Notes: a model not told the origin generated them from the sequence alone. 64,000 bases of DNA from an uncultured Deferribacteraceae bacterium (GCA_947041165.1 CAMRCY010000008.1:1-64000), one strand, 5' to 3'; counted from the first letter of the stretch, positions 622 through 26,891 are shown. Translations and numbers: made by a program.

Positions 622-661
622 ATAAGTAAAAACTTGTATCGTTTGTTATCAAATAATTGAA

Positions 662-698
662 CCACTGTAACTTTGTAAATTTTACAGTGGGGTTTTTT
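662..698 (+). terminator. Rho-independent terminator after the permease
   Basis: CCACTGTAA (662-670) pairs with TTACAGTGG (682-690) and is followed by a T-run. It separates the permease from the ArsR gene, so the two probably have separate transcripts. Confidence 0.85.
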
Positions 699-761
699 AT
701 AATATCAGTTATTTATAATTTTTTAGCATTTGTAACTGATCGTATTCACAACATCTACTAT

Positions 762-20525: not shown

Positions 20526-21416
20526 TTATAATCCTGCTTGCTTTTTAACTTCTTCAGCAAAATCTTCTTTACGTCTTTCAATTCCATCACCTAACATAAG
20601 GCGTGTAAATCTAACAACTTTTTTATCACCTAAAAATGCTTTGATAGTAATATCAGGATTTTTAACAAAGTTTTGAGATAATAAACAAGATTCTTCAGTG
20701 AACTTTTTGATTTGTCCTTCAACTATTTTAGGAATAATATTATCAGGCTTGCCACTTTCTTTAGCTTTTGCCGTATAAATTTCTTCCTCATGTTTTAATA
20801 AAGCTTGATCAAGTTCGTCTGGAGAAACACATAGTGGGTTCATTGCACAAACATGCAATGCGATATCTTTAATTATCTGAACGTCAGCTATTGTAACGTT
20901 TTCCATTTCAACAATTGCACCCATTTTTCCACCCATGTGAATGTATCCTTCAACGATACCGTTTGCAGATTCTAATCTTGAAAATCTACGAAGAATAATA
21001 TTCTCGCCGATCGTTCCGACTTTCTCTGATACAACCGTTTCAACAGTTGAGTTATATTTTTCAAAAGGTAATTTGTTTAAAGCATCTACATCTGCTGGGT
21101 TTTTAGTTAATATTATATCTGCAATATCGTTACATAAAGTGATAAAATCATCTGTTTTTGCAACAAAATCTGTTTCACTATTAACTTCTAAGATTACAGC
21201 TGTTTTGCTATCAGCTGATTTACAAACTGTAATAAGTCCATCGGCAGCTATACGGCTAGATTTTTTTGCAGCATCATCTAATCCTTTTTTTCTAAGATAA
21301 TCTATCGCTTTATCAAAATCACCGTTAGTTTCTGTAAGAGCTTTCTTACAATTAACCATTCCAGCGCCTGTTTTTTCTCTTAACTCTTTTACAAGTGATG
21401 CAGTTATTTCAGCCAT
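20526..21416 (-). CDS. tsf: Elongation factor Ts
   Basis: 296 residues. The UBA-like N-terminus (LVKELREKTGAGMVNCKKAL) and the core NSETDFVAKTDDF, with HVCAMNPLCVS and later VKNPDITIK, are typical. It recycles EF-Tu-GDP. The ATG overlaps the rpsB stop (TAATG), giving translational coupling. Confidence 0.97.
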   Translation of the reverse strand: MAEITASLVKELREKTGAGMVNCKKALTETNGDFDKAIDYLRKKGLDDAAKKSSRIAADGLITVCKSADSKTAVILEVNSETDFVAKTDDFITLCNDIADIILTKNPADVDALNKLPFEKYNSTVETVVSEKVGTIGENIILRRFSRLESANGIVEGYIHMGGKMGAIVEMENVTIADVQIIKDIALHVCAMNPLCVSPDELDQALLKHEEEIYTAKAKESGKPDNIIPKIVEGQIKKFTEESCLLSQNFVKNPDITIKAFLGDKKVVRFTRLMLGDGIERRKEDFAEEVKKQAGL

Positions 21417-22465
21417 TATTTATCTACCTCTTCTTTAGTTTCTTCTTTGATTGCTTCTACTTTAGCAACAACTGGAGCTTCTGCAACTGGTGCAGCAACT
21501 GGAGCTTCTACAACTGGAGCTTCTGCAACTGGTGCCGCAACTGGTGCAGCAACTGGAGCTTCTGCAACTGGTGCCGCAACTGGTGCAGCAACTGGAGCTT
21601 GTGCAACTGGTGCAGCAACTGGAGCTTGTGCAACTGGTGCAGCAACTGGAGCTGTTTTAACAATTGGTGCTTGAGTAACTGGAGTTGCAGTACCTTCAGC
21701 CTCTGCCATAGATACAGGAGTATTTTCAGTATCAGGAAGCTCTTCGCCTGCTGCTCTGATCTCTTCAGCTAATCTTTCTTCTCTTAACTGTCTTCCTTCG
21801 ATTACTGCATCTGATATACGGCTAGCTATTAACTGACACGCACGAATTGCATCATCATTACCTGGGATCGGGAAATCAACTTCATCAGGATCACAGTTTG
21901 TATCAACGATTGCTATTATAGGTATACCTAATGTATGGGCATCATTTATTGCATTTTGCTCTAATCTTATATCAACAATAAACATAACATCTGGAATTAA
22001 TTTCATATCTCTAATTCCACCTAAGTTACGCTCAAGTTTGTCATATTCTTTTTTAAGTAGTGATGCTTCTTTTTTAGTGAAACGTTTAATGTATTCGCTA
22101 TTAAGAATGCTCTCTAACTCTTTTAATCTGCCAACTCTAGTTTTGATCGTGTTAAAGTTAGTTAATGTACCACCAAGCCAACGCTGGTTAACATAGAATG
22201 AGTTACATCTTGTTGCAGTTTCTTTAATTGCATCTTGAGCTTGTTTTTTTGTTCCAACAAATAAAAATGTTGCTCCACCTTTTGCCATATCTCTTGCAAA
22301 TTCGTAAGCGTTGTTAAAACATTGAACTGTTTTTTGAAGGTCTAGAATATAGATACCGTTTCTTGCACCATAGATATATTTAGACATCTTAGGATTCCAT
22401 CTTTTCGTTTGATGGCCGAAGTGAACACCAGCCTCTAATAGGCTCTTCATTGAAATGTGTGACAT
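21416..22465 (-). CDS. rpsB: 30S ribosomal protein S2 with long Ala/Pro/Val repeat tail
   Basis: 349 residues; S2 proteins are usually 230-260. The S2 core runs from [20 protein letters not shown] to [19 protein letters not shown] (about 245). The extra tail is low complexity, built of [13 protein letters not shown] and EAPVA units. I chose the ATG at 22465, which has AAAGGAG just upstream, over a longer frame beginning at 22522 that would overlap the leader hairpin. Open frames on the opposite strand across the tail are shadows of the repeat. Confidence 0.95.
21470..21658 (-). repeat. Short coding repeats in the rpsB tail
   Basis: Units of 9 to 12 codons (mainly 27 bp, APVAAPVAQ or APVAAPVAE) are repeated with high DNA similarity, as expected for slippage-prone sequence. 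Confidence 0.8.
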
Positions 22466-22494
22466 AAATTCTCCTTTGTTAAACTTCCACCGTA

Positions 22495-22534
22495 CTAAAA
22501 AGACACCTACAAACATAGGCACTAGACTTTTTAG
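22495..22534 (-). promoter_or_regulatory. Hairpin in the rpsB leader
   Basis: On the minus strand CTAAAAAG pairs with CTTTTTAG, with an inner GTGCCTA / TAGGTGT helix. It lies in the roughly 100-nt leader between the promoter and the S2 start. S2 is known to repress its own mRNA through leader structures in several bacteria; the role here is inferred. Confidence 0.5.
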
Positions 22535-24255: not shown

Positions 24256-26640
24256 CTATCCACCTCTTATTAATGTCAATGCATTCTGAGGGATAAGATT
24301 AGCTTGTGCCAACATTGTTGTTGCAGTTTGCACTAATACCTGATCTCTTGCAAGTCTTGTTGATGCCTCAGCCATATCTAAATCTCTTATTCTAGCCTCT
24401 GCTGTATCTAAGTTCATTGAGATGTTCGTGATGTTATCTAGTGTGTATTCTAGTCTACTCATCTGCGAACCAGCAACTGCTTTAAATTTATTAATTTTTT
24501 CTAAAGCTCTGTTTGCTTGTGTTATTGCACGTTGCGATGTTTCTAAATCTACAACGTACAAATCATCTATTTCGAGTCCAGTCGTGTCAAGCTGGCCTAC
24601 TGATATATTTAACAATTGTCCTTCATTTGCTCCTACTTGTATCTGAGTAGTATTATCTACTAAGTGAAAAAATACTGTCTCTCCACCTGAAGCTTTTACA
24701 TACTCTACTCTATTGGTTATAGGATCCCATATTGCATTAAATCCGATCGTGTCATCTAGGATAACATCTACACCTTCAATTATTCCTCGTAAATAACCGT
24801 CACCAACTCTCTCATTACCGATAAGTTCACCAGTGTGTGCATCAGTAACCTTTACCTCAAGTAACGATCCTTCAGGTTCTTGTATAACTCCTAAATTTAA
24901 TGCATTGAGCATATCTTGATCACCGATAATAGCTAATTCTGAAAATCGTCCGAATGTTCCTGTTTGCATTACAAACGTCCCTTCAACTGCTCTGTCTGTT
25001 CCTGGATCAACATCATCTCTTGATACAAATTTTACAAGATTTGCATTAATTACATCTGCATTAGGAACAGTATCTGGAACTCCCATTCCTAAATCCTTAA
25101 CTATTGCATTATTAAGTTTTCTTTCAAGATCTTCAATAGTATCTTCATACCCTATAAATATCTTAGCTTGTTTACCGTTAGCATATATCGATAACTCTTG
25201 TCCAAGTTCTAAAATATTAACACCATCAACATTTGTGAAACCAGCAATATCACGTAACTTAGTATCCTTTGTTGCAATACCTTCATCCCTGATCATAACT
25301 GTTGATACACCTGTTAATGTTTTATTACCTGCACCTAATGCTTCTTTAAATTCTAAAGTTATAGAACCAACTGAGGTATACCCATTCTCGCTATCTAAAT
25401 TCATAATATGTATAGGCACTTCATTATAATCATCAAAATCATCACCGTTATTATCTTTAGTTAATGAATTACTAGATGAGTAATGAATAGGTGGTGTCAC
25501 AGATGTCGCACCTGATACCTGAACAACTCCTCCTCCATTTGCAGCCCATGTTTCACCTGCTGGGATAGGTGGAGAGAATGAACCTAAAAATTTATCGCCA
25601 CTTGTTAATACAGCTGCTGCATCAATATTGAATGTTAAAACCCCAGTTTTAGTAGCAGTGAATGCTGAACTTAAATTAATCGTGAAAGTCGCACTCATAG
25701 GTGCTGCCCCTGCGGTTGTTGATGCTGTTATCCATTTAGACATTTCACCTGTCTTTGCATCCATCACTCTATACTTATATGATACTACACCACTGTTAGG
25801 AGGAGAACCAACTGTTCCTGATGTAAGCATCTCTAATTCAAAATAACCTGAAAAATTTGGATCACCTACAGTATTTATGCCTGTAACTGCCCACGTAGAA
25901 TCATCTTGTAGATAAGTGTCTACAGTCGTTGCTGTTCCAGCTGTTGCTGCAGATGTTTTCACATGGATATTTATTCCATCAGCACCAGTCGTAGGTAGAT
26001 TGATTGGATCTCTTACAGAACCTAGATTTGTGTCTACTCTCTCAATAACCTCTGCAACTAATACACCTGGTAAAACTGACATGATATCTGATTTATAAAT
26101 TGCATTCTTACCAGCAGTTTGTCCTGTAACATCAATCTTATAGTTACCTTCCCCGATATCAGGGCCACGAACTATAGCATTAATATTAGGATTAGATGAC
26201 GACCATAACGCCGTTGAATCTCCATCTAGTAATTTCTTAGTATTAAACTCTGCTGATTGTGATACTCGATTAATCTCTTCTTTTAATTGATCAACTTCAA
26301 GTTGTAATATTACCCTGTCATTAGCAGTGTATGCTCCGTTACCAGCTTGTACTGAAAGCTCTCTCACACGAAGAATCATATCACTCACCTGGCTCATTGC
26401 ACCCTCAACACTTTGCATATACGAAAGTCCATCTTGAGTATTTAATGAAGCTCTTTTTAAACCACTGATCTGACCAGCAAGTTTGTCTGCTACTGCAAGT
26501 CCTGATGCATCATCACTTGCCGAGTTAATACGTAACCCAGTTGAGAGCTGTTTAATAACATTCCCCTGCTCTCTTGATGCCTTTGATAAAGCAACTTGAG
26601 CTGGTGATGCATATAAATTATTATATACGAATAAGCTCAT
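24256..26640 (-). CDS. fliC: Flagellin, oversized (794 residues)
   Basis: The N-terminal D0/D1 part has LSTGLRINSASDDASGLAVA (about 32-51) and VSDMILRVRELSVQAGNG; the C-terminal part has LEKINKFKAVAGSQMSRLEY, then RDLDMAEASTRLARDQVLVQ, ending QANLIPQNALTLIRGG. These are standard. About 550 residues between them are a variable surface insert (most flagellins total 250-500), with a flagellin-IN-like stretch (LGQELSIYANGKQAKIFIGY) near 475. Filaments assembled from it would have a large outer domain. AGGAGGTAGG precedes the ATG. The long leader carries a FliA promoter and candidate CsrA sites (separate entries). Confidence 0.95.
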   Translation of the reverse strand: MSLFVYNNLYASPAQVALSKASREQGNVIKQLSTGLRINSASDDASGLAVADKLAGQISGLKRASLNTQDGLSYMQSVEGAMSQVSDMILRVRELSVQAGNGAYTANDRVILQLEVDQLKEEINRVSQSAEFNTKKLLDGDSTALWSSSNPNINAIVRGPDIGEGNYKIDVTGQTAGKNAIYKSDIMSVLPGVLVAEVIERVDTNLGSVRDPINLPTTGADGINIHVKTSAATAGTATTVDTYLQDDSTWAVTGINTVGDPNFSGYFELEMLTSGTVGSPPNSGVVSYKYRVMDAKTGEMSKWITASTTAGAAPMSATFTINLSSAFTATKTGVLTFNIDAAAVLTSGDKFLGSFSPPIPAGETWAANGGGVVQVSGATSVTPPIHYSSSNSLTKDNNGDDFDDYNEVPIHIMNLDSENGYTSVGSITLEFKEALGAGNKTLTGVSTVMIRDEGIATKDTKLRDIAGFTNVDGVNILELGQELSIYANGKQAKIFIGYEDTIEDLERKLNNAIVKDLGMGVPDTVPNADVINANLVKFVSRDDVDPGTDRAVEGTFVMQTGTFGRFSELAIIGDQDMLNALNLGVIQEPEGSLLEVKVTDAHTGELIGNERVGDGYLRGIIEGVDVILDDTIGFNAIWDPITNRVEYVKASGGETVFFHLVDNTTQIQVGANEGQLLNISVGQLDTTGLEIDDLYVVDLETSQRAITQANRALEKINKFKAVAGSQMSRLEYTLDNITNISMNLDTAEARIRDLDMAEASTRLARDQVLVQTATTMLAQANLIPQNALTLIRGG

Positions 26641-26647
26641 ACTACCT

Positions 26648-26661
26648 ACCTCCTTGTAAAA
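26648..26661 (-). promoter_or_regulatory. Flagellin ribosome binding site overlapping a CsrA-like site
   Basis: The mRNA reads UUACAAGGAGGU across the Shine-Dalgarno, close to the CsrA consensus RUACARGGAUGU. A CsrA dimer bound here would block ribosome entry, as established for the Bacillus flagellin gene hag. Confidence 0.5.
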
Positions 26662-26679
26662 TTAGAATTGTTTTCTTTA

Positions 26680-26697
26680 AGGCTCATCCATGAACCC
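26680..26697 (-). promoter_or_regulatory. Hairpin with GGA loop, second CsrA-like site in flagellin leader
   Basis: GGGUUCAU and AUGAGCCU pair around GG, placing AUGGAU at the loop (mRNA CAUGGAUG). The GGA is 33 nt before the GGA of the ribosome binding site, within the spacing a CsrA dimer can bridge. Confidence 0.5.
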
Positions 26698-26743
26698 CAC
26701 ATACAATAAGTTTGCTCTCTATAAATTATATAATTTTAATCAC

Positions 26744-26765
26744 AAAAAAAAGCCCACAATAGGCC
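26744..26765 (-). terminator. Terminator-like hairpin inside the flagellin leader
   Basis: Minus strand GGCCU-AUUGU-GGGCU (5 bp including two G-U pairs) followed directly by eight U. It lies between the FliA promoter and the flagellin start, so it would act as an attenuator or end a short leader RNA, not a gene terminator. Confidence 0.5.
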
Positions 26766-26768
26766 AAA

Positions 26769-26801
26769 TCATAAACAGAGTATTTATTACTTCCGTTATG
26801 A
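26769..26801 (-). other. Long hairpin upstream of the leader terminator
   Basis: TCATAA and TTATGA pair, with an internal CGGA/CTGT loop and an inner AGTA/TACT stem. It stands immediately before the terminator-like hairpin and could be part of a regulatory RNA domain. Confidence 0.4.
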
Positions 26802-26864
26802 ACTGACCTGATTGACTCAGTATCTGCTCGTTATATAAAATATAGTAGAACTCTTACTTCTCAC

Positions 26865-26891
26865 TTATCGTCATCATCTCAATTTTCTTTA
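26865..26891 (-). promoter_or_regulatory. FliA (sigma-28) promoter for flagellin
   Basis: Minus strand TAAAGAAA (26884-26891), exactly 11 bp spacer, GACGATAA (26865-26872). The -10 differs by one base from the sigma-28 consensus GCCGATAA. The transcription start would be near 26858, giving a leader of about 218 nt. Confidence 0.75.

What the first reader, a model, noticed from the sequence alone, without database searches (positions are those of the whole stretch)
26640..26891. Flagellin leader combining FliA promoter, internal attenuator-like hairpin and two CsrA-like sites
Seen: a near-consensus sigma-28 promoter with exact 11-bp spacing, then a 218-nt leader. The leader holds a long hairpin (26769-26801), a short hairpin followed by U8 (26744-26765), a hairpin with GGA in its loop (26680-26697) and a Shine-Dalgarno embedded in ACAAGGAGGU. 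Established: in Bacillus, CsrA binds two GGA sites in the hag leader, one on the Shine-Dalgarno, and FliW antagonises it. Inferred: the same post-transcriptional control here, with an added transcription-attenuation step between promoter and flagellin. The attenuator part matches no riboswitch I know.
Basis: partly seen in the sequence, partly recalled or inferred. Interest (0 to 1): 0.7.

Follow-up and report, generated by a model that had tools for sequence, protein, structure and literature searches.

The report
Flagellin RNA switch across Deferribacterales
Just upstream of the flagellin gene, and upstream of flagellin genes across a whole bacterial order, lies a small conserved RNA hairpin that overlaps a transcription stop signal, which looks like a previously undescribed on/off switch for making flagella, stacked on the known CsrA/FliW control.

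Summary

The leader carries a 20-nt hairpin, P1: a 3-bp lower stem, a bulged A, a 4-bp upper stem and an A-rich pentaloop. Its 3' arm is also the 5' arm of a hairpin that runs into a U-tract. A covariance model built without the window copy finds this P1-plus-terminator element in 35 of 46 genomes of the order (Deferribacterales, which includes Mucispirillum), against 2 weak hits in about 340 genomes outside it. Of 70 strong hits, 61 lie within 1 kb upstream of a flagellin and 3 upstream of FlaG; the rest are at contig ends or, once, next to an insertion. Six of the seven P1 pairs show double compensatory changes. Base pairing in P1 and in the terminator excludes each other, as in BglG/SacY antiterminators. 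Rfam has no match.

A second flagellin class has nearly the same hairpin with its lower stem on the Shine-Dalgarno.

csrA and fliW are adjacent in the genome, and both GGA sites fit CsrA.

The factor that binds P1 is unknown; FlbT, BglG-type and second-NusG candidates are absent. The window copy is divergent, so which hairpin terminates there is uncertain. No RNA data exist.

The parts
26884..26891 (-). -35 element TAAAGAAA of a sigma-28 (FliA) promoter
   Evidence: conserved in three congeners; scored against shuffles
26865..26872 (-). -10 element GACGATAA, 11-bp spacer
26805..26824 (-). P1 hairpin GAU-A-CUGA-GUCAA-UCAG-GUC (lower stem, bulged A, upper stem, pentaloop): proposed antiterminator and binding site of the regulator
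   Evidence: perfect motif match; 7 pairs, 6 with double changes over 55 copies, same fold predicted de novo
26761..26809 (-). P2: AGGUCAG...UUGGCCU stem enclosing the long hairpin; its 5' arm overlaps the 3' arm of P1
   Evidence: -18.9 kcal/mol in the window copy; conserved in 4 species
26769..26801 (-). long hairpin UCAUAACGGAAGU-loop-ACUCUGUUUAUGA, upper part of P2
   Evidence: loop length varies, stem kept
26751..26765 (-). local hairpin GGCCU-AUUGU-GGGCU, mutually exclusive with P2
   Evidence: -5.0 to -5.6 kcal/mol in 4 species
26744..26751 (-). U8 tract of the terminator
   Evidence: U7-U8 in all four congeners
26681..26696 (-). hairpin GGUUCA-UGGA-UGAGCC, candidate CsrA site 1 (GGA at 26687-26689)
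   Evidence: pairs kept by compensatory change in congeners
26648..26657 (-). ACAAGGAGGU: Shine-Dalgarno and candidate CsrA site 2 (AC-AAGGAG-GU)
   Evidence: consensus from PMC7652899
24256..26640 (-). flagellin gene, 794 aa
   Evidence: PF00669, PF00700

Best explanation
The flagellin leader is a two-layer control region. Layer 1 (new): transcription starts at a sigma-28 promoter and soon makes the P1 hairpin. If P1 is not held closed, its 3' arm is taken over by a longer, more stable hairpin that ends in a U-tract, and RNA polymerase stops after a leader RNA of about 110 nt. A factor, most likely an RNA-binding protein that reads the bulged A and the A-rich pentaloop, stabilises P1, keeps the terminator from closing and lets transcription run into flagellin. 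Layer 2 (known kind): the full-length mRNA is held back by CsrA at the GGA-loop hairpin and at the Shine-Dalgarno, and released by FliW. Shown by sequence: the anatomy, its conservation, the covariation, the mutual exclusion, the flagellar context, and csrA-fliW. Inferred: termination in vivo, the existence and identity of the factor, the sign of its action, and CsrA binding.
For: The window leader is nearly identical in structure in four species. The 5' motif occurs perfectly three times in the genome: in this leader and twice in tandem before another flagellin, each time followed by a hairpin and U-run. A covariance model from 15 other copies (window copy excluded) hits 35/46 genomes of the order. 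At the stricter setting it hits 34/46 against 2 weak hits in about 340 genomes outside. Of 70 strong hits 61 have a flagellin within 1 kb downstream on the same strand and 3 precede FlaG (FlaG context). P1: 99.2% of cells paired, 6 of 7 pairs with double changes, 0/500 shuffles as high. Terminator stem: 6 of 9 pairs with double changes. One base pairs in both structures and covaries in both. Forcing P1 opens the stem base next to the U-run in the canonical copies. A sigma-28-like promoter lies within 150 nt upstream in 76% of copies against 5% of shuffles. csrA-fliW present; both GGA sites conserved.
Against: No RNA or protein data. P1 alone is weak (-2 to -5.6 kcal/mol), so the switch needs an unknown factor. 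The window copy is divergent: the model scores it 19.7 bits, E=0.043 in the window, the U-run sits 10 nt beyond the P2 stem, and forcing P1 leaves a 5-6-bp local hairpin before the U8, so P1 might not prevent termination here. Copies before the main flagellin of Mucispirillum and in G004 keep P1 but have no U-run. More than half of the flagellin-family matches, and several genomes that do have flagellin, have no hit with the model, although many of those genes carry the Shine-Dalgarno form of the hairpin.
Confidence: 0.7

Rival explanations
1. In the window copy the logic is reversed: the 5-bp local hairpin GGCCU:GGGCU plus U8 is the real terminator, the long P2 stem is the antiterminator, and P1 (by taking AGGUC away from P2) promotes termination.
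For: AGGUC:GGCCU and GGCCU:GGGCU exclude each other and both are conserved in four species; forcing P1 yields the local hairpin directly before the U-run.
Against: The local hairpin is weak (-5.0 to -5.6 kcal/mol); in the canonical copies P1 opposes the terminator; the composite stem also reaches the U-run in the minimum-energy fold.
Confidence: 0.2
2. The element is a plain leaky terminator that caps flagellin transcription, with no regulator; P1 is only a by-product of the terminator's flank.
For: The terminator stem is strong in the canonical copies (about -14 to -32 kcal/mol for the element) and no factor is known.
Against: P1 covaries on its own, keeps a bulged A and an NANAA loop, and recurs without a terminator on the Shine-Dalgarno of other flagellins.
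Confidence: 0.1
3. P1 is a protein-binding site for mRNA stability, localisation or translation, and the overlap with a terminator is secondary.
For: P1 exists without a U-run before the main flagellin of Mucispirillum and on the Shine-Dalgarno of class B flagellins.
Against: Most class A copies have a proper terminator whose base, next to the U-run, is exactly what P1 excludes; tandem copies each bring their own terminator.
Confidence: 0.1
4. The terminated leader of about 110 nt is itself a small regulatory RNA made by sigma-28 polymerase.
For: A promoter and a terminator bound a short conserved RNA.
Against: The loop and bulge conserved across the order fit a protein site; outside P1 and the terminator the leader RNA shows no conservation that I could see beyond the genus.
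Confidence: 0.05

Closest known systems
BglG/SacY/LicT ribonucleic antiterminator (RAT) switches
   Same: Short hairpin whose 3' part overlaps the 5' foot of an intrinsic terminator; the two are mutually exclusive; protein binding would favour the hairpin (PMC9981650).
   Different: Different hairpin (bulged A, 4 bp, NANAA loop); flagellin instead of sugar genes; no CAT_RBD protein above cut-off in any of 46 genomes.
CsrA-FliW control of hag (Bacillus) and flaA (Campylobacter) leaders
   Same: Two GGA sites, one in a hairpin loop and one on the Shine-Dalgarno; csrA and fliW in the genome (PMC7652899, PMC4894983).
   Different: The passages read describe no terminator/antiterminator between promoter and GGA sites.
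c-di-GMP riboswitch before flagellar genes of Clostridioides difficile (from memory)
   Same: Transcription-terminating leader switch ahead of flagellar genes.
   Different: No Rfam match; P1 is only 20 nt; gene is flagellin, not the basal-body operon.
FlbT control of the fljK flagellin leader in Caulobacter (from memory)
   Same: Protein acting on a flagellin 5' UTR.
   Different: FlbT is absent from all 46 genomes.
LoaP / RfaH (second NusG) antitermination (from memory)
   Same: Short signal close to a terminator.
   Different: Only one NusG in this genome and in most element-bearing genomes.

Membership tests
CsrA-FliW controlled flagellin leader | csrA and fliW genes present | tested here: met
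   adjacent, E=2.4e-24 and 1.2e-36
CsrA-FliW controlled flagellin leader | two A(N)GGA sites, one in a hairpin loop, one on the Shine-Dalgarno | tested here: met
   conserved in congeners
CsrA-FliW controlled flagellin leader | CsrA binds and blocks translation, FliW relieves it | not testable with these tools
   needs gel shift and mutants
RAT / BglG-type antitermination | hairpin overlapping the foot of an intrinsic terminator, mutually exclusive | tested here: met
   for the canonical copies; ambiguous for the window copy
RAT / BglG-type antitermination | protein with the CAT RNA-binding domain | tested here: not met
   none over cut-off in 46 genomes
NusG-paralogue antitermination (LoaP/RfaH) | a second NusG-family protein | tested here: not met
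   one NusG in G000-G003 and most element-bearing genomes
FlbT-controlled flagellin leader | flbT gene | tested here: not met
   0 of 46
ANTAR antitermination | two hairpins with hexanucleotide loops (from memory) | tested here: not met
   one hairpin with a five-base loop; ANTAR proteins themselves not searched
Known Rfam RNA family / riboswitch | match to an Rfam 15 model | tested here: not met
   no match
Intrinsic terminator | stable hairpin directly followed by a U-run | tested here: met
   canonical copies; in the window copy either the composite or the local hairpin
sigma-28 promoter | TAAAGTTT-N11-GCCGATAA | tested here: met
   TAAAGAAA-N11-GACGATAA; 76% of copies vs 5% of shuffles

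The most novel reading that the evidence does not exclude
One unknown RNA-binding factor reads the same bulged-A, NANAA-loop hairpin in two flagellin classes of Deferribacterales. In class A, which includes this window, closing the hairpin blocks a terminator and turns the gene on. In class B closing it hides the Shine-Dalgarno and turns the gene off. The factor would thus switch reciprocally between two flagellin types, for example to order them along the filament.
Probability: 0.3. Interest if true: 0.87.

Novelty: new variant of a known kind. Interest (0 to 1): 0.74.

Why it matters
Flagellin is among the most costly proteins a motile cell makes; in the well-studied cases it is timed by sigma-28/FlgM and by CsrA/FliW. 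A conserved antiterminator/terminator element between the sigma-28 promoter and flagellin would add a transcription-elongation checkpoint. I found no description of one in Rfam or in the papers searched. The element is compact, occurs up to several times per genome and includes Mucispirillum, a mouse-gut mucus bacterium, so it is easy to test in vitro. The unknown protein that reads it could be fished out with a 20-nt bait. If the two-class switch is right, one RNA module is reused with opposite sign at transcription and translation.

Tried and rejected
Known riboswitch or other Rfam family: no match at gathering or relaxed thresholds.

Reading of the 5' motif as a coding stretch or leader peptide: an open frame crosses it in one copy (L098), but the changes across copies fall mostly at second codon positions and keep base pairs, so the constraint is structural (reading).

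NusG paralogue, FlbT and CAT_RBD factors: absent.

CsrA as the factor for P1: P1 loops carry no GGA.

Repeat or mobile element: copies sit at one place in flagellar leaders and differ in stem sequence, so rejected; one copy (G021:C3:25825) is followed by transposase-like remains instead of a flagellin.

The R1 hit at window 639-699 (20.4 bits) fits the P1 sequence poorly and follows a 129-aa gene; taken as an ordinary terminator.

A first alignment mixed the strands of two loci and was redone. One Pfam call failed on wrong coordinates and was repeated.

Literature searches gave no report of a flagellin leader attenuator in this group.

Full report
WHAT IS IN THE WINDOW. The flagellin gene (minus strand, 24256-26640, 794 aa; PF00669 and PF00700) has a leader of about 217 nt behind TAAAGAAA-N11-GACGATAA, a sigma-28 promoter with the exact 11-bp spacer. 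A blastn search of the leader brought three species of the same genus at 85-91% identity. Aligned, the stretch from GATACTGAG to the U-run is almost invariant, while the promoter-proximal and the distal spacer vary.

THE ELEMENT IS NOT CONFINED TO THIS GENE. A second flagellin operon of the same genome (contig C38) has, upstream of the start codon, two tandem stretches that begin with the same motif and continue as a hairpin and a U-run. The motif GRTAYTGAKNNAATCARG has three perfect matches in the 2.14-Mb genome, all in flagellin leaders; with up to one mismatch there are 8 matches against 0 for the reversed pattern. In relatives it recurs before flagellin genes across families. A scan of 84,980 species gave 24 contigs: 11 from Deferribacterales (Mucispirillum, Calditerrivibrio, Deferribacteraceae and an unnamed member) and 13 from elsewhere, close to the chance number I estimated beforehand (about 15, my own arithmetic). 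Contig lengths identify genus g3 as Mucispirillum and thereby the order.

MODEL AND SPECIFICITY. I aligned 15 copies without the window copy or its three orthologues and built a covariance model, R1. Of 46 genomes in the order 35 have a hit. In a sample of 385 genomes at stricter settings, 34 of the 46 are hit and 2 of about 340 others, weakly (E 6.5e-4 and 1.6e-3). Of 70 hits with E up to about 8e-4, 61 have a flagellin N-domain within 1 kb downstream on the same strand (flagellins). The other nine: three precede FlaG genes (PF03646 for the downstream proteins; context), five are at contig ends, one is followed by transposase-like remains. Two of the three genomes in the order without any flagellin, G016 and G023, are nearly complete and lack the element; the third is 73% complete. 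The window copy, held out, scores only 19.7 bits (E=0.043 in the window) because its U-run lies 10 nt further from the stem.

STRUCTURE. The motif is a hairpin, P1: GGU or GAU, a bulged A, four pairs, a five-base loop (consensus AAYAA), and the complementary arm ending in GCC, ACC or GUC. Over 55 copies 99.2% of cells are paired, 6 of 7 pairs have changes on both sides, and 0 of 500 shuffles reach the observed values; slid controls drop to 16-51%. RNAalifold predicts the same fold unaided. Stems change wholesale (CUGA:UCAG, UUAA:UUAA, UCAA:UUGA, UUAC:GUAG, UGUA:UACA) while the bulged A (50 of 53; G in the rest) and the loop A's stay. For weak copies the register was chosen with help of a pairing score, so they lean towards the structure; the strong copies do not depend on it. 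The terminator stem covaries too (6 of 9 pairs), and the base at alignment column 23 of A1 covaries with its P1 partner and with its terminator partner. This is what a mutually exclusive antiterminator and terminator should look like. P1 alone is worth -2 to -5.6 kcal/mol, the terminator fold about 3 to 9 kcal/mol more than the best fold with P1 closed; closing P1 frees the stem base next to the U-run. So the expected default is termination, and something must hold P1 closed. A sigma-28-like promoter precedes P1 in 76% of copies (score at least 14) against 5% of shuffled sequences.

THE WINDOW COPY. P1 is intact (26805-26824). P2 pairs AGGUC (26805-26809) with GGCCU (26761-26765). GGCCU can instead pair with GGGCU (26751-26755) directly before the U-run. 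In the minimum-energy fold P2 is extended by GAGUC:GGCUU at its base and this composite stem reaches the U-run; with P1 forced, the local hairpin forms. Either could be the terminator. The two readings give P1 opposite signs in this leader, and sequence cannot decide between them.

SECOND FLAGELLIN CLASS. Flagellins without the terminator element often have a short leader: sigma-28 promoter, a hairpin such as GCGC-AAGGA-GCGC with GGA in the loop and a varying stem, then CCUCU-A-UUGA-AAVAA-UCAA-GGAGG before the start codon. This is nearly the same hairpin, with its lower stem on the Shine-Dalgarno. I found it in strict form in 25 of 53 leaders scanned, including flagellin C28 of this genome, with variants in Mucispirillum and G004. 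A model of class A hairpins alone (R2) picks several of them out at the right place with modest significance (E 0.007-0.05 in 23 kb); it also finds one further class A hairpin (L288, E 7.7e-6). That the same factor reads both classes is inference.

CsrA LAYER. csrA and fliW are adjacent behind flgL. The Shine-Dalgarno AC-AAGGAG-GU and the C-AUGGAU-G loop both match the ANGGAN hexaloop described for CsrA/RsmE, with AC:GU closing the former as in the SELEX consensus (PMC7652899). All 51 class A flagellin Shine-Dalgarnos examined contain A(N)GGA, and there are more GGA sites upstream of them than in shuffles (3.4 vs 1.8); a Shine-Dalgarno resembles such a site anyway, so this is supportive only. 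The layout resembles hag of Bacillus and flaA of Campylobacter (PMC4894983).

FACTOR. FlbT is absent from all 46 genomes, no CAT_RBD protein passes the cut-off, and there is a single NusG in this genome. The factor is therefore unknown. The geometry (bulged A, four pairs, small A-rich loop) recalls phage coat-protein operators such as PP7 (from memory), which is an analogy for protein recognition and not a claim of relation.

LIMITS. Everything is comparative sequence analysis. Termination, factor, sign and CsrA binding are untested. E-values from the models are rough. Related genomes are not independent, but the element spans most families of the order with wholesale stem changes.

Noticed in passing
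G000 contig C28 (L024, L292): Upstream of the class B flagellin lie about five tandem copies of a ~45-bp unit (TTTTATTAATTTTAYGATACTTGATTATTACAYACTCAAACTATC); the CUCUCU-G-UUGA-AUUAA-UCAA-GGAGG hairpin covers its Shine-Dalgarno.
   Followed up: partly
L127:4109-4182 (Planctomycetota bacterium contig JACOTG010000290.1): A near-perfect P1 plus terminator element (44.7 bits) outside the order, ahead of an 807-aa, apparently secreted protein that is not a flagellin; chance, transfer or contamination not resolved.
   Followed up: partly
L189, L195, L202 (Mucispirillum, upstream of FlaG): After the P1/terminator element comes a long conserved leader (starting GGAGCGAGGGTYTGT) of about 300 nt without Rfam match; looks like another structured RNA.
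   Followed up: no
L088-L096 (Mucispirillum) and L097: P1 before the main flagellin has no U-run; instead a P2 hairpin and, in Mucispirillum, a conserved GGAGAAGACATTATGARAAAAGCGATTTA, possibly a short upstream ORF.
   Followed up: partly
L100:3326-3392 (G021): An element copy nearly identical to its neighbour's is followed by transposase-like remains instead of a flagellin.
   Followed up: partly
window 21416-22522, minus: Ribosomal protein S2 (368 aa as called) carries a long C-terminal [10 protein letters not shown] repeat tail.
   Followed up: no
L112:592-783, minus (G000 contig C38): Small ORF of 63 aa (MERSIDKRLESLEDKIEVMRSD...) between two flagellin genes; unknown, a possible regulator candidate.
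   Followed up: no
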